Part shown: positions 4,601 through 32,197 of the stretch, one piece after another | How positions within the stretch are numbered: the first letter of the stretch is position 1 | Layout: the number at the start of each line of letters is the position of its first letter | IMG/VR virus record: IMGVR_UViG_3300029989_000086 | Coordinates: 1 to 37,899 of that record | Source of the DNA: a virus | Strand: one strand, 5' to 3' | DNA: 37,899 nucleotides | The notes under the pieces: generated by a model | Told to the model about the DNA's origin: nothing | Seen by the model: only the letters and a program-made list of their open reading frames with translations | The model's database searches: none | Made by a program: the position numbers and the translations under genes

Positions 4601-6078
4601 TGAAGGACACCTTCGAGAGTTACGACCAGTTCCTGGCGAACCTCACGAAGACCGATCCTTCGTCAGCTACGGCAATCTTCGACCAACTGAAGGCGAAAGC
4701 AATCGCTGCTGGATGGTCCGTTGAGGATCTGTCCAAGGTGTTCGACGACTACCAAGCTGCCGCAGCCCTTGCTGCGGGTAAGGCTAGTGGCTCCTTCAAG
4801 AAGTCCGCCGAAGAAATCGCGGCCGATGCTGAAGCTGCCAAGAGTTCCTTCTTGGGCACGCAGAACACCATGGTCAACCAGATGAAACTGTTGGGCTCCA
4901 AGAACAAAGCCCTCATAGCGCACCAGCTCGTTCAGCAACGCAACACAATGCTGACGGAGATGGCGAAGACTGCAACTGGTGCCGATAAGGAAATCCTCGG
5001 CAAGGCGAGCGCTCTGAACGACAAGATCTCGTCGGCTACCACCAAGCTCGGCAACGCCACCAGCAAGAAGGCTAAAGAGAAGTACTCGAAGGAACTGGAC
5101 ACCCTTCTGGCTACGTACCAGGAGAAGTTCGGAACCGACATCTCTACCCTCCTGACGGGCGGCTCGTCCGGCTCGGACACGATGTCTGCGGCGATCTCTG
5201 CGATGGTCGGCAACGGCCTCACTCCAGAGGCGAAGGCAACGCTGACGTCCTCGATCGAGACCCCGGTCAACACCGCAGTCGACAACGCCAAGATCAAGAT
5301 CGCGACGCTCCCTGGAGCGATCACGGGACTGGATATCGCCGGCAAGGTGAACGCCAAGGTTGCTGAAGCGCAGACCGCCATCACGACGGGCGCTGCGACC
5401 ATCACGGCCGGAATGTCCGGAACGCTGATCACCTTCGCAGTCACGGCTTCGACAATGGCCTCCACGGCTGTTGGAACGCTGAGGACGTTGGTCTCCGCAT
5501 CGTTTGGTGCAATCGAGACCGGCATGAGCGAGTACGTCATCGCGTTCTCGACCCAGTCAAGCCTCGTTGAAGGAATGGCTTCAACGCTCAGGGATCGCGT
5601 GAAGGGCAACGTTACCGTTGACCTCTCACTCCAGGGCGCGGCAGCCGTGAACTCGTTCATCAGTGGCGCCACTTCAGCGGACTCCCTTAGCAGGGTTGTC
5701 GCTGCGGCAAAACTGGTCGGCAAGACCTTCAAGGACAACAAGGGTCCCCTGAGTTACGACCGAGTGATGATGGTGCCGGAAGGCAAGGCCACCGTCGCAG
5801 GCTACGTAGACGGAATCCTGTCCCAGGTTAACGCCGTGAAGAGTGCAGCGAAGACCGTTACGAATGCGGCAGCCGGCGAGTTCGGTTCCGCAGCTGATCG
5901 CGCGATTAGCGCGGCAGCCACGTCATCGAGTATCGACAAGCTCGCAGTCAGTGCAAACCAGACCGTCTACACGATCGGCGACGTGACTGTGGATGTGAAG
6001 GAACTCGAAGGCGTCAAGACCATCGATCAGCTCGCGAAGACTCTCCGCCGTAAGAAGCGGCAGGCTGGAGGTAAGTAG
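1699..6078 (+). CDS. Tape measure protein
   Basis: 1,459 aa, the longest gene here, as usual for the protein that sets tail length and spans the tube lumen. It is rich in Ala, Lys, Ser and Leu helical segments. Hydrophobic stretches, notably around residues 365-420 (many Ala, Ile, Leu, Met), suit insertion into or passage through the host membrane at DNA ejection. No lysozyme or peptidase motif (LysM, M23, NlpC) was recognised. By the rule of thumb of about 0.15 nm per residue, the tail would be near 200 nm. The ribosome binding site GGAGG lies at 1689-1693. It directly follows the chaperone pair and precedes the tail tip genes. Confidence 0.9.
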   Translation: MAGTLVVGRVAVRIWPDTRLFKQDLEAQLEEKTSSVDAKVPVEAELQAEQMEADLEQKVKRLSRIRIALRAQVKGLDKDVLAATKAAEGLSKADPITFSTDVHGLDLTKAMDRGIKEAITRRFASAINSSLAKGMKVDPEQLQKLAREVEVGLGPVSISPSLGKGFLDEARKARSELQGEANKVSWFDPKNFERDVVARLGGKTVTVPIKYNGSDKDFRNQYRKLVNDSIRDTNKTMPGILGNAFGRAIGNPIIESVRAAGFRLKNLFSDVSAIRIKAEVDESTLAKAEIELELWFKRLKVMTTHVKTVLDKKSVRGVITGLGALSGGRVFKNLVTLEPFKHLDEQLPKISLMATMLGQAANYLISMSSDAFALGRSIAQIAPAALVLPGIFAGAATSMIVLTTAMSTMKKQAVGVYNQWSALQKKIGKNFWSAAAKPMSTFLSDMSGGFKRTSTILGGFIAKVLGSFHDIVSPHIASYVTALGKGFSIIGGASPAIAHIVKTFGDLGAKATPRLAQWVADMTNKFSAWMKLKGKSGLNRMIEDAITNIKSLWNVAAGTQKILSGISKAATAAGGATLTSLGDSLQRIAKIVNSSGFQARLTNVFASARDAIENMVGVSGPAVSKMFRDIGDNADKLLPKVGIVAGKIIASFATVFDQPQVGNSILNFFDALNGTLDKLQPTLTNVSNGMAGVINVLAKMLTAFEPIVEIAFGALESHATGLLKSIQVVIENLSSGLATFMTDLLPAIDQLAPALLSLLENTSGDIKNILVVAGPAVEALLRLLAGAATVLSSIPGPLQGVFALALGGALAVKVALGGWKSVLGEWAVKAKAVGASVQESFKGSAISNFGSKLKGLVSNLAGIAIKAFMVSAALNAIGAALDTRQAVAGADALSLAMQKIQDNSDFSSLNTQLRNSMWPDAVNKFDDLTLSMKKFKDQTQGFSGNLTGLTDKILGFLGTADASNTQKLKDTFESYDQFLANLTKTDPSSATAIFDQLKAKAIAAGWSVEDLSKVFDDYQAAAALAAGKASGSFKKSAEEIAADAEAAKSSFLGTQNTMVNQMKLLGSKNKALIAHQLVQQRNTMLTEMAKTATGADKEILGKASALNDKISSATTKLGNATSKKAKEKYSKELDTLLATYQEKFGTDISTLLTGGSSGSDTMSAAISAMVGNGLTPEAKATLTSSIETPVNTAVDNAKIKIATLPGAITGLDIAGKVNAKVAEAQTAITTGAATITAGMSGTLITFAVTASTMASTAVGTLRTLVSASFGAIETGMSEYVIAFSTQSSLVEGMASTLRDRVKGNVTVDLSLQGAAAVNSFISGATSADSLSRVVAAAKLVGKTFKDNKGPLSYDRVMMVPEGKATVAGYVDGILSQVNAVKSAAKTVTNAAAGEFGSAADRAISAAATSSSIDKLAVSANQTVYTIGDVTVDVKELEGVKTIDQLAKTLRRKKRQAGGK

Positions 6079-21679: not shown

Positions 21680-22008
21680 GCTGCCTCGTCCTGCCGATCA
21701 ATCCGACGACAGAGATCCTCGGTGAGGTCCGCAACGAACGCGTAGCCCAGGACGCCAAGTGGGGCGAGCAGAACCACCGGGACGGAACCGGGGAGGGTCA
21801 ATCCCGAACCCTGGCCGATAGCGCACGAGACGCGTGTGACATCGCAGCCGAGAACGGGTTCTGCACATGGCGCCACATCCTCACCGAGGAGTTCTACGAA
21901 GCCATGGCTGAGTCCAACCAATCCAGCCTCCGCACAGAGCTGATCCAAGTGGCCGCAGTTTGCTGCGCGTGGGTCGAGGCAATCGATCGCCGTAAGGAAC
22001 TGGTATGA
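21667..22008 (+). CDS. MazG-like nucleotide pyrophosphohydrolase-type protein
   Basis: 113 aa. The pattern NERVAQDAKWGEQNH, then ILTEEFYEAMAES, then LRTELIQVAAVCCAWVEAID matches a widespread phage family related to the MazG/all-alpha NTP pyrophosphatases, with EE-x2-E type metal ligands on one helix. It could clean up nucleotide pools or (p)ppGpp; the exact substrate is unknown. ATG 21667 overlaps the thioredoxin gene by 13 bases; an alternative GTG lies at 21676. Confidence 0.6.
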   Translation: MAVVSCLVLPINPTTEILGEVRNERVAQDAKWGEQNHRDGTGEGQSRTLADSARDACDIAAENGFCTWRHILTEEFYEAMAESNQSSLRTELIQVAAVCCAWVEAIDRRKELV

Positions 22009-22952
22009 GCACTGGGTTTCCGATCCTGGACAGCATCTTCTCCGAAGATCCGGGACTGAAGGACATCGTCGATGATTCCACGATTACCGCTGAGATGGCG
22101 TCGGCTGGGCTCGGGAAGTTGGGTCACCCGGTTTCCGCCAGCACGATCCGGACATACCGCCGAAGCCGTAAGCCGAAGGTTGCCCCGGTAGCGCAGAGCG
22201 CCCTCGCTGACAGCGCCGGACTGAAGTCAGTGAAGATCCTCACGATGGACATCGAGACCATCCCTGCCCACGTATGGACCTACGACCTGAAGACCAGCTG
22301 GATTCCCCACAAGCACATCACGCAGCCTGGGGACATGCTCTGCTGGGCAGCTAAGTGGTACCACCAGCCCAACGACACCCTGTTCGCCGGCCGCAATAAG
22401 GGCTACGACGAGATGCTCGTCCAGCTGTGGACGCTCCTGGAAGAGGCCGACTACATGGTCGGCTGGAACTCGGACAGGTTCGATCTCCAGAAGACCCGTG
22501 GCTACTTCGCACGAGCTGGACTCCCTCCGTTCGTTCCGCCGAAGTCCATTGACCTGATGCGCACGGCGAAGACGTTCGGTTACGAATCCGCCAGCCTCGA
22601 CTACACGGCCCGCCAGTTCGGCGTGACCCGGAAGGTCGACAACGGCGGAGCCACCAACTGGGAAGGCTGCATGGCAGGCGACCAGAAGTCGTGGGACCTG
22701 ATGGAAGAGTACAACCGGGGCGACATCATCACCACCGAGGAACTGTTCGACGCGATGCGTCCCTGGATCAAGGGCCATCCGAACATCCACCCGGAACCGG
22801 GCTTCTGCCCCAGGTGCGCATCGGTCGACCTGACCTACGCGGGTGAGTTCCAGGCGGAGGCGTATCGCTACGCGATGTACCGCTGTGGCAACTGCCAGGG
22901 CCTGTCCCGGGAGACCGCACGTACCCGAGCCTCGATCCTCAGGGCGGTGTGA
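22005..22952 (+). CDS. 3'-5' exonuclease (DEDDy) with N-terminal HTH and C-terminal zinc ribbon
   Basis: 315 aa. Residues ~25-55 (ITAEMASAGLGKL, SASTIRTYRRSR) look like a winged or homeodomain-like helix-turn-helix. The exonuclease core follows: motif I MDIET (Asp82, Glu84), motif II GWNSDRFD (Asp160), motif III YNRGD (Tyr236, Asp240). Two CxxC pairs (Cys268/271 in FCPRC; Cys294/297 in RCGNC) make a C-terminal zinc ribbon. It is a stand-alone proofreading-type nuclease; no DNA polymerase gene is visible, so it may serve a host polymerase or degrade nicked host DNA or structured RNA. The HTH suggests sequence- or site-targeted recruitment. ATGA overlap with the previous gene. Confidence 0.8.
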   Translation: MSTGFPILDSIFSEDPGLKDIVDDSTITAEMASAGLGKLGHPVSASTIRTYRRSRKPKVAPVAQSALADSAGLKSVKILTMDIETIPAHVWTYDLKTSWIPHKHITQPGDMLCWAAKWYHQPNDTLFAGRNKGYDEMLVQLWTLLEEADYMVGWNSDRFDLQKTRGYFARAGLPPFVPPKSIDLMRTAKTFGYESASLDYTARQFGVTRKVDNGGATNWEGCMAGDQKSWDLMEEYNRGDIITTEELFDAMRPWIKGHPNIHPEPGFCPRCASVDLTYAGEFQAEAYRYAMYRCGNCQGLSRETARTRASILRAV

Positions 22953-23617: not shown

Positions 23618-24214
23618 ATGGGAAAGATCACTGCTGAGCTGGCTGACGGCTCGATCCTGGAGGCTTCCGCCTCCATCGTAAGCATCACCACCGACACAGA
23701 GCACGACTACGACCTGGGTTCGTGGTGGAGTGTCCCGATTCTCACGTACCGCCTGGAGGCGAACCTCCTCGACGGGTACAAGATCACCAAGCCCAAGCCG
23801 GCCTACAAGGTCGACCAGGAGCTGATCACCGAGGAGGACTACGCGAACCTTCCTGATGGTGCAACCGTGAACCCATCCAGGTCCTACCTCACCTGGCGGG
23901 GCGACTCGATGCACTACATCAAGCGTGATGGCATGTTCTGCACAGTTGACTACTACCCCGCCTCAGCTTGGCCTGCCATCAAGCTGACCGGAGCTGCCCG
24001 CACGGTCCGCTCCCTGCCGGACACCGAGGTCACGATCTCGGCCAAGAAGCTCGACCTGCTGAACGCCGAGCTGGTCGACGTGCACGAGGAGAAGGAAACC
24101 CTCCGTGCGCGGGTGGCTGAGCTGGTCGAACAGGTCAACAAGGAGCGCTATGTGAACGCTGGCCTCCGGAACGCCATCAGCGAAGCCAAGTACGAGTTGG
24201 ATCTCGTCGCGTGA
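23618..24214 (+). CDS. Hypothetical protein with C-terminal coiled coil
   Basis: 198 aa, ATG 23618 with GAGGAGGAAGT. The first two thirds are beta-rich (SIVSITTDTEHDYDLGSWWSV). Residues ~140-190 (AKKLDLLNAELVDVHEEKE, RARVAELVEQVNKE) form a coiled coil that would dimerise it. It overlaps the ATP-grasp gene by 4 bases. Function unknown. Confidence 0.55.
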   Translation: MGKITAELADGSILEASASIVSITTDTEHDYDLGSWWSVPILTYRLEANLLDGYKITKPKPAYKVDQELITEEDYANLPDGATVNPSRSYLTWRGDSMHYIKRDGMFCTVDYYPASAWPAIKLTGAARTVRSLPDTEVTISAKKLDLLNAELVDVHEEKETLRARVAELVEQVNKERYVNAGLRNAISEAKYELDLVA

Positions 24215-24915
24215 TCTCAATCGCCTACAGCGGGACTAGCTCCCCATCGGCACACCGTCTCGCGGAGGTGAGTCCCGAGGTCGAACTGGTCCGGGACTCC
24301 TCTGCGGAGGTCGACGTGAACTGGGGGCGAGCGGACGCCAACGCCAAGCTCAACCGCGACACGAGCAAGGCCACGAACAAGCGCGTCATGCGGGAGCTGT
24401 TCCGTGAGCACGGAGTTCCCATGCCGACGCTCTACGACGTGGACGAGGTTCAGGTCCCCGCCATCGGCCGGCCCGATCGCCACACAAGGGGCAAGGCCCT
24501 GTGGCTCTGTGAGAATGACGGCGCCGTGAAGGCTGCCCTTCGAGGCACGCCTCGCAAGCGAGCTGCCAGCCATTTCATGGAGTATGTGTCGAAGGAGCGG
24601 GCTCCCCGCGAGTTCCGGGTCCATGTGTTCTTGGGCAACGTGATCCGCACCAGCCTGAAGTCCTACGACGCGGCAGCTCAAGAGGCTGGCCGGCACTACA
24701 CGACGGTGAGTGCGGAGGGCTTCCGGACTGACCACGTTCGGGACGCTGCACGCAAAGCGATCAAGGCTGTCGGTCTGGACTTCGGAGCTGTGGACGTCCT
24801 GGCGAACGACGACGAGTGCTGGGTCCTGGAGGCGAACTGCGCTCCTGGTCTTGGCGGAACGATGCCCGAGGTGTACGCGAACGCGTTCGCCAGCTGGAAG
24901 GAATGTGCCGCATGA
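24211..24915 (+). CDS. ATP-grasp ligase (RimK/COOH-NH2 ligase type)
   Basis: 234 aa from GTG 24211. VNWGR near residue 37 and NKRVMRELFREHGVPMP begin the ATP-grasp fold; the lid region ALWLCENDGAVKAAL and FMEYVSKERAPREFRVHVF bear the ATP-binding Lys and Glu, and FGAVDVLANDDECWVLEANCAPGL holds the Asp/Glu/Asn Mg ligands. The family joins a carboxylate to an amine using ATP. Phage members are thought to modify peptides or wall components, but substrates are unproven. Here it is followed in a 4-base overlap by a tiny Cys-rich protein and a 66-aa protein, which may be substrates. Confidence 0.75.
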   Translation: MISIAYSGTSSPSAHRLAEVSPEVELVRDSSAEVDVNWGRADANAKLNRDTSKATNKRVMRELFREHGVPMPTLYDVDEVQVPAIGRPDRHTRGKALWLCENDGAVKAALRGTPRKRAASHFMEYVSKERAPREFRVHVFLGNVIRTSLKSYDAAAQEAGRHYTTVSAEGFRTDHVRDAARKAIKAVGLDFGAVDVLANDDECWVLEANCAPGLGGTMPEVYANAFASWKECAA

Positions 24916-25370: not shown

Positions 25371-26777
25371 TTAGGCCGCACTGGGCTCGAACACAACCTT
25401 GTCCGGATCGTAGGTCCTGGCCCCCCTCCCGAGCGGCGTGAGGGTGATCTTCGTGAACACGCGGCTAAGGAGGGTGCGGTACTCCCCCCTGCTCATCTGC
25501 GCAAGCTCCTGCGCTAGGTACTCCTCGTCCCGTACGGCCTCTAGCGCGGTCCAGGATTGCCCCTGCCCGAGTCTGGCAAGCTCAGCGTTGATCTGTGCCA
25601 GCTGACCCTTCAGGGAGTCCTCAGCGGCTTGTAGGGCCGCGAGCGAGATGGTCCCGGATGCGAATGCCTGACCAACCTCGGAGGAGCGCGATTCGGCCGC
25701 GATCTTCCCTGACTTCAGGATGCGAAGCCGCTCAGTATCGCCGTCATCTAGCTCCCCACTCCAGAGGTCCGGGCGGCTAGCGAGTTCGGTGATCAGGCGT
25801 TTGAACACGACCGCGTTAAGCCAATCTTCGGGGTAGTTGAGGTGCTGGGTGGCGGAACAGCAATAGAACGTCGCGAAGGCCTTCCGCTTCGCTATCGTCC
25901 CCCGCTTCTTGATGTGCGCACCGCAGACCCCGCACGAGACGAACGACAGCCCACCCAGCTCCGTCGTGGGGCTCGCGCCGGAACTGACTGCCCTCGGAGT
26001 TAGGCGAGTGGGGTCATTGAGGATCGCTAATGCCGCACGGTAGGTCGGCTCGTCTACGATCGCTTCCCAGTCACCGGGACCTACCTCAACGTCGTGATAG
26101 GTGTTGATCCCGGCATTACGCGCGTACTTCAAGATGCGGCCAACATCCCTGGGGGTGTGGCTCTTTCCGGTCCCCCGAGTGAATCCAACCGATTCCCAGT
26201 ACCGGGTGATGTCACCCATGGTTGATCCGGTGACCAGCATGCGGTAAGCCTCGGCGATGTAGGGCGCCTGCGTAACGTCGACGGTTCCGTCCAGCGCGTA
26301 TCCGTAAGGCTTCTTCGACCACCACTTCCTCCCCATCGCTGCACGCTGACGATTAGCCAACCTCTGCCGCTCCCCCTTCAACTCCACCTCATTCTGTGCC
26401 CAGGCGGTGACGGTACGAGCCAACGCTCGGCCGGTGGGGGTACTCAGGTCGAACTCGCCAGCCTGAAGTGCGTGGACCTTGCACCCCAGGTCGAGAACCC
26501 GCTCCAGATCCTTTGTCGACTTCCGCAAGAGTCGGTCGTTGTGCCAGCACACGATGTCTCGCGGACGGTCCTTCAGTAGCTGCTCGAAGTCAGGGCGGAG
26601 CTTCCCGTTCGAGGCGCTGATGTCGTTGTCGCGATAGACTCTGGTGACGGTGAAGCCATGGCTCGCAGCCCACTCCTGACACACGGTCTCCTGGCGCTCG
26701 ACGCCGAGTGCCTGCTCTGAGGGGTCGTCACTGATGCGGACGTAGATCACGCATTCACTAGGGGAGTTGCTCGTCAT
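25371..26777 (-). CDS. int: Large serine integrase
   Basis: 468 aa. N-terminal resolvase domain with catalytic Ser16 in YVRISDDP, Arg-rich helices, and VCWHNDRLLRK; recombinase domain from about 150 (KKPYGYALD); zinc ribbon (SCGVCG ... FYCC) around 280-310; and a C-terminal coiled coil (LQAAEDSLKGQLAQINAELARL). This is the standard large serine recombinase that joins attP to attB in the host chromosome, so the phage is temperate. It is the first gene read leftward from the attP candidate, and its ATG is only 6 bases from a -10-like box with no ribosome binding site, implying a leaderless message. A directionality factor is not recognised. Confidence 0.92.
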   Translation of the reverse strand: MTSNSPSECVIYVRISDDPSEQALGVERQETVCQEWAASHGFTVTRVYRDNDISASNGKLRPDFEQLLKDRPRDIVCWHNDRLLRKSTKDLERVLDLGCKVHALQAGEFDLSTPTGRALARTVTAWAQNEVELKGERQRLANRQRAAMGRKWWSKKPYGYALDGTVDVTQAPYIAEAYRMLVTGSTMGDITRYWESVGFTRGTGKSHTPRDVGRILKYARNAGINTYHDVEVGPGDWEAIVDEPTYRAALAILNDPTRLTPRAVSSGASPTTELGGLSFVSCGVCGAHIKKRGTIAKRKAFATFYCCSATQHLNYPEDWLNAVVFKRLITELASRPDLWSGELDDGDTERLRILKSGKIAAESRSSEVGQAFASGTISLAALQAAEDSLKGQLAQINAELARLGQGQSWTALEAVRDEEYLAQELAQMSRGEYRTLLSRVFTKITLTPLGRGARTYDPDKVVFEPSAA

Positions 26778-26778
26778 A

Positions 26779-26836
26779 CAACGATGATACCAATGGATCT
26801 ACCATGACCATCGTAGGTCCATTCGCACCATCGTTG
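26779..26836. other. Candidate attP (58-bp imperfect palindrome)
   Basis: Left arm 26779-26802 and right arm 26813-26836 are inverted repeats with 20 of 24 bases matching (outer eight CAACGATG/CATCGTTG exact). The centre (26803-26812) is CATGACCATC, whose middle dinucleotide AC (26807-26808) could be the crossover core. Serine integrases use ~50-bp attP sites with exactly this symmetry, next to int. The site begins 2 bases from the integrase start codon. Confidence 0.75.
26784..26789 (-). promoter_or_regulatory. Candidate -10 box of a leaderless integrase promoter
   Basis: On the minus strand TATCAT lies 6 bases before the integrase ATG, so transcription would start on or next to the A of the start codon. 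Upstream of this ATG there is no Shine-Dalgarno. Leaderless messages are common in actinobacteria. The matching -35 would fall near the attP centre and is weak. Confidence 0.45.
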
Positions 26837-26854
26837 CCCGGAGGGGCGAAACCC

Positions 26855-27166
26855 CTAGTGGCGCCGCACTTCGCGCAGACGATTTGCGCCGTAGGCCGTC
26901 AGGCCGATGCCGATGGCGAGGCCGATGATGTTGGGAGCGTTTCCCGCGAGGTCTATGAGAGTGAGCGCTAGTCCGATCACCATGAGCGTCACGCCGAGCG
27001 CGGTGCGCCACGCCTTCTCTGAGGACGTCAGGGAGTATGCCTTGCCTTGGCGAATCAGCTCCATGACCTCCACTCTGCGGGCGTCGTAGGTGGGCTGGTT
27101 AATCTCGCCGGATTGGAGACGCTGGTCGAGGTTGGCAAGCATAGCGGGACCGAGTTGCTGGGGCAT
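26855..27166 (-). CDS. Small membrane protein beside the integrase
   Basis: 103 aa from ATG 27166; a GTG at 27202 would give 115 aa but sits in the tail of a leftward terminator. Residues ~10-40 (ANLDQRLQSGEINQPTYDARR) resemble a SHOCT-like short helical domain, followed by two membrane segments (TALGVTLMVIGLALTLIDLA and IIGLAIGIGLTAYGA). Small double-span membrane proteins near integrases are often prophage-expressed and can block superinfection; that is a hypothesis here. On the minus strand TAAGCT (27174-27179) lies 7 bases before the ATG, which would again allow a leaderless message. Confidence 0.6.
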   Translation of the reverse strand: MPQQLGPAMLANLDQRLQSGEINQPTYDARRVEVMELIRQGKAYSLTSSEKAWRTALGVTLMVIGLALTLIDLAGNAPNIIGLAIGIGLTAYGANRLREVRRH

Positions 27167-27201
27167 GGCGTGGAGCTTACTCGCGAACTGGTCCAGAAAC
27201 A

Positions 27202-27232
27202 CGAAAAGCCCCCACCCCGAAGGGTGAGGGCT
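27202..27232 (-). terminator. Leftward terminator closing the long leftward operon
   Basis: An 11-bp stem with one mismatch (AGCCCTCACCC read on the minus strand) and a TTCG loop, followed on the minus strand by CTTTTCGTGTTT. It would stop transcripts coming from the right before the membrane protein and integrase genes, so these two are probably controlled separately. Confidence 0.8.
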
Positions 27233-27397: not shown

Positions 27398-27603
27398 CAC
27401 GCCATCTCCCTCGCTGACACAACCTTGAAGCTGTACCGCAAGGCCTGCCTCGGGGATGATCCTCCGGAGATCTCTGTCGCCCGATCAATCGCGGCCGGTT
27501 GGGTATCTGCATGGACGACCATGGTGACGTAGCTATCTCGGATGGGGCCTCGGTTATACGTTCCCGTAGTCCATGTGCATCGTTCGATCGTGAACTCGGT
27601 CAT
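27397..27603 (-). CDS. Small hypothetical protein
   Basis: 68 aa, ATG 27603, 4-base overlap with the RNA ligase stop. Reads like a single small alpha/beta domain (ERCTWTTGTYNRG, SYVTMVVHADTQ). No family recognised. It is translationally coupled to the ligase. Confidence 0.5.
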   Translation of the reverse strand: MTEFTIERCTWTTGTYNRGPIRDSYVTMVVHADTQPAAIDRATEISGGSSPRQALRYSFKVVSAREMA

Positions 27604-28352
27604 GCAACCAACTCCATATCCGATTTGCGCAGCGCGACTTCGGCAGCCTTCTCCGTGTCGTCGACGAACGCCTTGAACGTCTGCCTGCTGCCTGAGTGGA
27701 ACAGCACGACGCCCTCGGGCTTGTCGAACTCGGCCGCATAGGAGCCGTGGTCACGCAGCGCGCCTATCGCGGCATCGACGTAGCTGCCGACCCGGACGAC
27801 GTCCGTGTCCTCGTTCAACCACGACACCAGGGGAACGAGGCCGAGCGTCGGCATATCTGGGAACGGGCTCGGCCCGCCGTAGAACACGTTGCTCCGCTGG
27901 GCGATGGCCAGATCCATGAAGTTATCGAACGGGTTGTGTCGGGTGACGTTGAACAGGCTGAAGCGCTTCTCGCCCTTCGGCAGTCCGTAGCCCCGCTGGA
28001 TTCCGTTGCCCCACCACTCACCGAAGTGGCGACCGGGGCCGAGGATCTTAACCAGGGCCTCTGCGTTGTCACGAACCCAGGCTGCGAAGCCGAAGTTGTC
28101 GGACTCGGGGGTGACGAACCGCTTGCGAGACTGCGCGTAGACGACGTACTGCTGCACGGGGAAGCCGTCGTCAGGGTCGGTCTCTCCGCCGAACACGACC
28201 GCGACACAGGCTGGATGGTCGACCCGTGGGCTCGGCCCCCACCACTCCTCCTCGATCAGTACGGCGCTGTTGGTGCCGTCGATCTTCTCGGTGATGATGA
28301 ACGGGCTGGCGAGCCGGGGGATCTTCGGCCAGGACTGAAACTCGACAGTCAC
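27600..28352 (-). CDS. Rnl2-like RNA ligase
   Basis: 250 aa from GTG 28352 with AAGGAG upstream. Nucleotidyltransferase motifs in order: motif I EKIDGTN with the AMP-accepting Lys23, AQSRKRF (motif Ia-like), motif III FGEWWG (Glu112), motif IV EGVVLF (Glu213), motif V FKAF (Lys227). This set is that of the T4 RNA ligase 2 / DNA-repair-type RNA ligases, which seal 3'-OH/5'-P breaks, usually in duplex or nicked RNA. It ends after motif V with only a short tail, so it lacks the C-terminal domain of Rnl2. It works in the same operon as a kinase/phosphatase and an Rnl1-type ligase. Confidence 0.85.
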   Translation of the reverse strand: MTVEFQSWPKIPRLASPFIITEKIDGTNSAVLIEEEWWGPSPRVDHPACVAVVFGGETDPDDGFPVQQYVVYAQSRKRFVTPESDNFGFAAWVRDNAEALVKILGPGRHFGEWWGNGIQRGYGLPKGEKRFSLFNVTRHNPFDNFMDLAIAQRSNVFYGGPSPFPDMPTLGLVPLVSWLNEDTDVVRVGSYVDAAIGALRDHGSYAAEFDKPEGVVLFHSGSRQTFKAFVDDTEKAAEVALRKSDMELVA

Positions 28353-29943: not shown

Positions 29944-30843
29944 CTAAAAGTCACCGGGGCCACACTGCATGCAGGTCAGCCCCAGATCACGCCAGAGATC
30001 CACCACGGAGTTGCGGTCATCAAACACGCCGACGACGTTGTAGTAGTCCCTGATCCACTCGTTGAAGATCTCCAGCTTCGCCTGCGAGTCAGGCCGGCTA
30101 TCGCCTTCCTTCCGCATGAACAACTCGGCCCAGGTCTCTCGGCCCAAGGTCTCATCCAGCCACTCAGCGGTCGGGATCTCACCCTCGCTGGAGCGCCCAC
30201 TGACGACCAGGACTGTGTGTCCCAGTTTGGACAGGCCCTTCGCCAGGGTGACCACAGCCTCGTGAGGGGAGTCCTGCTTGAGGGTGTCGTCAGTGGCGTA
30301 GAACGAGCGGCCGGACTTGTTGAGGGAGAGGGTGCCGTCGATGTCGAAGATGAACGCGGACGGGTGTGCCCTATTCGGCACGTAGGGCTCGGGGGCAACC
30401 CTGTCCGATTCCGGTGCGGGTGGTCGCTTGCGGAAGCGTCGGTTGATGTCCCGGATCACTTCCTCGCCAACCGCGTCGGCCCTCTTTGCGTCCCGCCGAA
30501 CGCACTCTTCGACGTCTGTCGTGACGTCCAGGACGCTGAAGTTCGCACCAGTCTCAGCGGCGATGTTGACCCACACCTTGAGGTACTTCAACCGCAGGTT
30601 CAGGTCGTCGATCACCACGCTCTTGCCGGCCTTCAAAAGCGTCCGGACGGAGTCACGCTGGATGCGTGAGATCTGCGTCTCCTGTGCGTTCGTCAGGCCC
30701 TTACGGGTGCCGTACAAGGCGTCCCGCAGCGGGTCTCGGCCCACTCGTGCGCGCCCTTCCGGGTCTTCAGCCACCCACTTCAAGGCGGCGGTGGTCTTTC
30801 CAGAGGCGGGAAGGCCCCTCGTTGCAATCAGCTCAACAGCCAT
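29944..30843 (-). CDS. T4-like polynucleotide kinase/phosphatase
   Basis: 299 aa, ATG 30843 with AGGAGG. The N-terminal kinase has P-loop GLPASGKTT (Lys16, Thr17) and GRD (Asp37) as general base candidate; the C-terminal HAD phosphatase has FDIDGTL (Asp167, Asp169), VVSGRS, and FDDRNSVVDLW. The order and positions closely follow T4 Pnkp (kinase then phosphatase, about 300 aa). It would remove 2',3'-cyclic or 3'-phosphate ends and add 5'-phosphate, preparing cut RNA for the ligases on either side. It lies between the two RNA ligase genes in one operon, with one 75-aa gene next to it. Confidence 0.92.
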   Translation of the reverse strand: MAVELIATRGLPASGKTTAALKWVAEDPEGRARVGRDPLRDALYGTRKGLTNAQETQISRIQRDSVRTLLKAGKSVVIDDLNLRLKYLKVWVNIAAETGANFSVLDVTTDVEECVRRDAKRADAVGEEVIRDINRRFRKRPPAPESDRVAPEPYVPNRAHPSAFIFDIDGTLSLNKSGRSFYATDDTLKQDSPHEAVVTLAKGLSKLGHTVLVVSGRSSEGEIPTAEWLDETLGRETWAELFMRKEGDSRPDSQAKLEIFNEWIRDYYNVVGVFDDRNSVVDLWRDLGLTCMQCGPGDF

Positions 30844-31055
30844 GAGTTGGCCTCCTTCTCAGTCCCCTCAAGGACGGTCGCTCGTTCGTTGTCTCGGGTC
30901 AGCCAGCGCAAGTCCGCAGCGACCAACGCTGCGCCGGCGTAGTCGGTGAATGGCTCACCCCACAGCATCGTCACGTCTGAGGTGATCGTGTTGTAGATGA
31001 CCGCCCAGTAGTAGACGGGCGCCAGTTTCGGGAACAGTTTGTCGAGAATGCTCAT
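30828..31055 (-). CDS. Small hypothetical protein between ligase and kinase
   Basis: 75 aa from ATG 31055. Starts MSILDKLFPKLAPVYYWAVI; has a hydrophobic/aromatic N-terminal stretch and a C-terminal helix (LRWLTRDNERATVLEG). Overlaps Rnl1-type ligase by 4 bases and the kinase/phosphatase by 16, so it is fixed in the RNA repair set by coupling. No known motif. Confidence 0.5.
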   Translation of the reverse strand: MSILDKLFPKLAPVYYWAVIYNTITSDVTMLWGEPFTDYAGAALVAADLRWLTRDNERATVLEGTEKEANSWLLS

Positions 31056-32197
31056 GCGGCCTCTTTCTCCTGGACTCGGTTGTTGGTTTGGGTGGGTCGG
31101 GTCATCCGCCACAGAGCCTTGTCCAGCTGGTCCCACTTGCGATCCAGCACCAGGAACAGGAGGCTCCGATTCCCGGACTTACTTACGGCGTCCGCGAACA
31201 CCTTCCGCTCCTCGCGGGTGACGTCGATTCCCGGCGCCCAGTCGCCGAACACCTCATCCGAGACCTGATCCCACTCGTCCCACACGCCGCCCTCGATGGC
31301 TGCCTGCTGGCCCCGCAGGTCCATCCAGACATTGGTGAACCATCTCCTGAACTCCTCAGGGAAGTTCAGGTGCACGAGCGCATCCGAGTAGGTCGGGTAC
31401 TTCCCCATCAGCTCCCATACGGTCAGCTCATTGAGGCCGGTCACGATGCGATGCAGGGCGATGTAGTCCTCTTGCTTCACCTTCACTGCGGTCTCCCACA
31501 TGGGGCCTTCGCGATCAATGAAGTGGACGACGTAGCCCTCCTTGTTGTCGCGGTGGAGGTCTTCGAGGACGTCCACCAGATTCCCGAAGTAGTCGACCGG
31601 GGTTCCGAAGAAGTCTTCGGCGTCCTCGTCGATCCACCAAGCCTCGCTGCGATCAGGCGGCGCTGCGCGAAGGACGACCAACCCCTCGAAGCCCTTGTAG
31701 TCGAGGACGATTCGGTTCTCCGGGTAGAGGATCTCGAACAGGTAGGTGAATCCGTCTTTGGGCGTGAAACCCTGGGAGATCGCATCCTGGAGCATCTCAG
31801 TGCCCTTCACGGCCTGCTCTGAGTGGAAGCTGCCGCGTGTTGCGATGGCATAACCACCCTTCGGGTGCGGGTAGAGGATTCCGAGGGAGCCGTCCATCTT
31901 GTCCACGGCGATCACATTCTCGTCGAGTCCATATGTGCCCTCGGGATGTTCGCCCAGGTTGAAGAACTTGCCGAATGGCTTGGTGACGATCTCGCCGTCC
32001 AGGCTGCCGGTGGTGGACTTGGCGATCAGGCCTCGCGTCTGGCGGGTCACGTCATTCCAATGGCTGTCGTTCTGGCACTTGTGCGTGTAGTTGAAGATCA
32101 TCAGGTATGGGTCATCGTCGTGGACGGACACCTTCACGTAGCCGTCCTCGATGTCATGGCGGAGCTGGTGGATGTCGAGAAGTTCGGAGAGTTTCAT
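31052..32197 (-). CDS. Rnl1-type RNA ligase (T4 RNA ligase 1-like)
   Basis: 381 aa, ATG 32197. TRGLI (Arg55) and KPFGKFFNLGEH precede motif I VDKMDG with Lys100, matching T4 Rnl1 where the same Arg, the PFPKFFN-like element and the active Lys99 sit in register. Further motifs: IATRGSF (motif Ia), YLFEILY (III), EGYVVHF (IV), VKVKQEDY (V, Lys pair). A helical C-terminal domain of about 110 residues follows, as in Rnl1, where it recognises tRNA. It seals single-stranded RNA breaks such as tRNA anticodon cuts. It ends one base after the start of the 75-aa gene. Confidence 0.9.
   Translation of the reverse strand: MKLSELLDIHQLRHDIEDGYVKVSVHDDDPYLMIFNYTHKCQNDSHWNDVTRQTRGLIAKSTTGSLDGEIVTKPFGKFFNLGEHPEGTYGLDENVIAVDKMDGSLGILYPHPKGGYAIATRGSFHSEQAVKGTEMLQDAISQGFTPKDGFTYLFEILYPENRIVLDYKGFEGLVVLRAAPPDRSEAWWIDEDAEDFFGTPVDYFGNLVDVLEDLHRDNKEGYVVHFIDREGPMWETAVKVKQEDYIALHRIVTGLNELTVWELMGKYPTYSDALVHLNFPEEFRRWFTNVWMDLRGQQAAIEGGVWDEWDQVSDEVFGDWAPGIDVTREERKVFADAVSKSGNRSLLFLVLDRKWDQLDKALWRMTRPTQTNNRVQEKEAA

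What the first reader, a model, noticed from the sequence alone, without database searches (positions are those of the whole stretch)
26779..26836. 58-bp palindrome that looks like the integrase attP
Two 24-bp arms match at 20 of 24 positions as inverted repeats around CATGACCATC, with a central AC dinucleotide, and the site touches the start of the serine integrase gene. Symmetry, length and position are exactly those of attP sites of large serine recombinases. It gives a testable core for the host insertion site.
Basis: partly seen in the sequence, partly recalled or inferred. Interest (0 to 1): 0.75.

Follow-up and report, generated by a model that had tools for sequence, protein, structure and literature searches.

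The report
Phage attachment site beside its integrase
A 58-base mirror-image DNA sequence lying one base upstream of a phage's serine integrase gene is almost certainly the site (attP) where that enzyme joins the phage to a bacterial chromosome; this is a normal arrangement, and the bacterial partner site is still unknown.

Summary
The palindrome is real. At 26779-26836, 23 of 28 base pairs are symmetric around a central AC (26807-26808); 20 of 24 match in the arms quoted. The next best even-centred site in the window scores 18, and 150 shuffles of the window never exceeded 20. One base separates it from the start codon of a large serine integrase (25371-26777, minus strand) of the R4/phiCAM group. 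The same blind scan finds the annotated attP of phage R4 and, next to int, the known attP of phiC31. Bxb1's attP also ends one base before its integrase start. Palindromes are strongly enriched in the 100 bp upstream of 53 distinct related integrases. The half-site occurs nowhere else in the window, there is no U-run, and no Rfam match. The best reading is attP of an Arquatrovirinae-like (R4-like) actinophage; the window is an incomplete genome. The attP call is inferred by anatomy and homology; recombination was not shown. The host and attB were not found: no close integrase relatives turned up, and half-site searches of 394 actinobacterial genomes gave no convincing site. This is an ordinary new member of a known kind.

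The parts
26779..26836 (-). predicted attP: 58-bp imperfect palindrome, two 28-bp half-sites around a central dinucleotide (AC on +, GT in integrase orientation)
   Evidence: 23/28 symmetric pairs, shuffles at most 20; half-site unique in the window; same place as attP in R4 and Bxb1
26807..26808 (.). central dinucleotide AC, predicted crossover point
   Evidence: centre of the best symmetry; role inferred from the serine integrase mechanism (PMC3783163)
26779..26786 (.). outer symmetric block of left half-site (CAACGATG), candidate zinc-ribbon domain contact
   Evidence: 8 of 8 outer pairs symmetric with the other arm; role inferred
26829..26836 (.). outer symmetric block of right half-site (CATCGTTG), candidate zinc-ribbon domain contact
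   Evidence: 8 of 8 outer pairs symmetric with the other arm; role inferred
25371..26777 (-). large serine integrase, 468 aa, R4/phiCAM-like
   Evidence: phrog_95 E=2e-74; PF00239 and PF07508; 37.8% identity to phiCAM over 99%, 38.7% to R4 over 83%; Ser16 and Cys282/285/307 invariant in the alignment

Best explanation
The palindrome is the phage attachment site attP of the adjacent large serine integrase. A dimer of the integrase binds the two half-sites (recombinase domain on the inner part, zinc-ribbon domain on the outer block). It synapses with a dimer on the host attB, makes 2-bp staggered cuts at the central AC, rotates half the complex and rejoins, inserting the phage genome. Shown here: the palindrome, its significance, its uniqueness, its place at the integrase start, and the same arrangement in relatives and in characterised phages. 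Inferred: binding, the cut at AC, and integration itself.
For: Symmetry 23/28, far above shuffles. One bp from a true large serine integrase. The R4 record (D38173) annotates a 50-bp repeat 231-280 with attP core 254-265 and int at 292, and the blind scan centres on it. The blind scan also centres on the phiC31 attP, although in that locus a palindrome elsewhere scores higher. The Bxb1 attP lies at 5443-5490 with int at 5492. 30 of 53 distinct related loci have a palindrome in the 100 bp before int in the top 10% for their locus, KS p=1.6e-11. Half-site present only here in the window.
Against: No attL, attR or attB was found, so no recombination product has been seen. In Bxb1 the strongest palindrome upstream of int is a different hairpin, not attP, so the strongest palindrome is not proof by itself. 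The arms share no evident sequence with the attP-like sites of the relatives examined. Several relatives show no notable palindrome in this place.
Confidence: 0.92

Rival explanations
1. The palindrome is an operator for a repressor, or for the integrase itself, controlling the integrase promoter, and attP lies elsewhere.
For: It lies where the integrase promoter should be; the sequence TATCAT a few bases before the ATG could be the -10 box of a leaderless transcript.
Against: The half-site is unique in the window, whereas repressor operators are usually repeated; 58 bp is longer than ordinary dimer operators; no other site near int is as symmetric. Integrase binding at attP could also regulate int, so the two readings are not exclusive.
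Confidence: 0.05
2. The palindrome encodes an RNA hairpin: a terminator or a translational control element in the leader of the integrase.
For: As RNA the strand folds into a near-perfect hairpin, -32.4 kcal/mol, z=-6.75.
Against: No T-run follows and no terminator was called here; no Rfam match; a DNA palindrome of this length always folds this way, so folding does not discriminate.
Confidence: 0.02
3. Chance symmetry.
For: None beyond the imperfect match.
Against: Best of 150 shuffles 20/28 against 23/28 observed; expectation 4e-5 in the whole window.
Confidence: 0.01

Closest known systems
attP of Streptomyces phage R4 (sre integrase, D38173)
   Same: imperfect palindrome just upstream of a homologous serine integrase gene (38.7% identity), similar total length
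   Different: different arm sequence; R4's repeat is 50 bp and lies 11 bp before the gene; R4's attB is known (fatty-acyl-CoA synthase gene, PMC6549336), this one is not
attP of Mycobacterium phage Bxb1
   Same: site ends one base before the integrase start codon
   Different: 48 bp, weaker symmetry, unrelated sequence, distant integrase
Predicted attP palindromes of phiCAM and phiScoe3-like Camvirus phages (L003, L004)
   Same: palindrome centred about 36 bp upstream of the match start in the closest phage integrases (37-38% identity)
   Different: no evident sequence similarity in the arms; not annotated as attP in the records

Membership tests
large serine integrase attP | adjacent gene is a large serine integrase with resolvase domain, recombinase domain, Cys motif and catalytic Ser | tested here: met
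large serine integrase attP | imperfect inverted repeat of about 48-60 bp around a central dinucleotide | tested here: met
large serine integrase attP | non-palindromic central dinucleotide that fixes orientation | tested here: met
   centre is AC/GT
large serine integrase attP | located at the 5' end of the integrase gene, as in homologues | tested here: met
large serine integrase attP | matching attB in a host, with zinc-ribbon motifs shifted 5 bp inwards (PMC3783163) | tested here: inconclusive
   half-site searches of 394 actinobacterial genomes gave no convincing site; host unknown
large serine integrase attP | recombination by the purified integrase or in lysogens | not testable with these tools
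   needs experiment or a lysogen sequence

The most novel reading that the evidence does not exclude
The unusually long symmetry (58 bp, outer blocks at positions 22-29 from the centre) means that this integrase contacts its attP further out than the A118, Bxb1 and R4 enzymes, i.e. a variant spacing of the zinc-ribbon domain and a new target specificity.
Probability: 0.2. Interest if true: 0.35.

Novelty: new member of a known kind. Interest (0 to 1): 0.2.

Why it matters
A compact int-attP pair of under 1.5 kb with arms unlike any relative examined could make a new orthogonal integration tool for actinobacteria, and gives a precise place to look for lysogen junctions. It does not change the understanding of serine integrases.

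Tried and rejected
(1) Integration into the R4 attB gene (fatty-acyl-CoA synthase): suggested by a 10-base likeness (CCATGACCAT) to the R4 attB as I remember it; rejected by hand because the flanking bases do not carry the outer motif at the expected 5-bp shift. (2) Integrase relatives as guides to attB: a single-protein scan found none in genome contigs or viral contigs. The alignment scan found L031 (58% over 137 residues), whose host-phage junction appears to lie in a small host gene, but the contig ends inside the integrase and its arms differ. (3) Arm-sequence scans of viral contigs: 104 and 8 stretches, not inspected one by one; number is compatible with chance in so large a collection, so not pursued. 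(4) Predicted attB half-sites in 394 actinobacterial genomes with up to 3 mismatches: right-half pattern in 273 genomes, left-half in 65, well above the reversed-pattern control, which I attribute (untested) to coding-sequence bias; the best full-site match among the loci checked was 27 of 40, against 23 in random sequence. These loci were preselected for a good half-site, so the excess is expected. (5) L025 21/29 half-site match: lies in a chromosomal reading frame, compatible with chance.

Full report
Observation. The 58 bp at 26779-26836 read CAACGATGATACCAATGGATCTACCATGACCATCGTAGGTCCATTCGCACCATCGTTG. No other even-centred site in the window scores above 18. In 150 dinucleotide-preserving shuffles the maximum was 20, and the binomial expectation for a score of 23 or more is 4e-5 in the window and 1e-7 within 100 bp of the integrase start.

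Surroundings. The ORF 25371-26777 on the minus strand starts one base from the palindrome. It is a large serine integrase: phrog_95 E=2e-74, PF00239 and PF07508 above their cut-offs, catalytic Ser16 and Cys282/285/307 invariant in an alignment with seven relatives. The best relatives are phiCAM (37.8%), phiScoe3, Pablito and R4 (38.7%), all Streptomyces phages of Arquatrovirinae. The tail genes are also distantly like those of Streptomyces phages. Two further IMG/VR contigs (L299, L300) carry the same phage at 99.9-100% identity where they overlap the window; L300 supplies terminase, portal and capsid genes, again nearest to Streptomyces phages at about 67%. The window is therefore an incomplete genome of an R4-like actinophage; its host genus is not determined.

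Comparison. The R4 record annotates a repeat at 231-280 with the attP core at 254-265, just before sre at 292. A blind search for symmetric sites upstream of int centres on that repeat, and in phiC31 it centres on the known attP sequence, though a palindrome elsewhere in that locus scores higher. In Bxb1 the known attP (5443-5490) ends one base before int (5492), the same spacing as here, although there a terminator-like hairpin outscores it (the phiC31 and Bxb1 attP sequences are from my own knowledge and were located by exact match). Among 53 distinct related integrase loci, the 100 bp before the integrase hold a palindrome in the top 10% of their locus in 30 (57%), KS p=1.6e-11 (sequences). 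Their arms differ from those of the window, as expected if each integrase has its own target.

Alternatives. The half-site is unique in the window, which argues against a repressor operator. There is no T-run after the hairpin and no terminator or Rfam match; the strong RNA fold follows from the DNA symmetry. Regulation of int by integrase bound at attP remains possible and does not conflict with attP.

Mechanism (inferred from A118, PMC3783163): integrase dimer on attP, synapsis with attB, cut at the central dinucleotide, rotation, religation. In A118 the zinc-ribbon domain covers positions 16-24; here unbroken symmetry extends over positions 22-29, slightly further out.

Host site. Predicting attB by the 5-bp shift rule and searching 394 actinobacterial genomes for either half-site gave scattered matches. 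They exceed the reversed-pattern control, probably through coding bias, and no site stood out; the best complete match among the loci checked was 27 of 40 specified bases. No attB is claimed. The phage's attB remains unknown because no lysogen or close integrase relative was found.

Verdict. The reading as attP is well supported (0.92) but ordinary: a new member of a known kind.

Noticed in passing
26756-26764 and 26852-26860: A perfect 9-bp inverted repeat (CACTAGGGG / CCCCTAGTG) flanks the palindrome almost symmetrically (centre 26808); one copy holds the stop codon of ORF 26855-27202, the other lies in the integrase gene. Meaning unknown, may be chance.
   Followed up: no
26779-26790: In integrase orientation TATCAT lies a few bases before the integrase ATG and no ribosome-binding site is evident, suggesting a leaderless promoter that overlaps attP.
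   Followed up: no
27600-28352, 29944-30843 and 31052-32197 (minus strand): RNA repair cluster: two RNA ligase-like proteins and a polynucleotide kinase; the region of the first is 75-80% identical in DNA (over about 400 bp) to RNA ligase genes of Microbacterium and Mycobacterium phages.
   Followed up: partly
24211-24915 (+): Protein matching phrog_2599, annotated as ribosomal protein S6 glutaminyl transferase, downstream of a DNA polymerase exonuclease-like gene (22005-22952).
   Followed up: no
L299, L300: The same phage occurs at 99.9-100% nucleotide identity in two other IMG/VR records; L300 extends it into the head genes.
   Followed up: partly
L031:3426-4408: A prophage integrase fragment (58% identical) in an actinomycete MAG sits next to what looks like a truncated small host gene, a likely attL.
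   Followed up: partly
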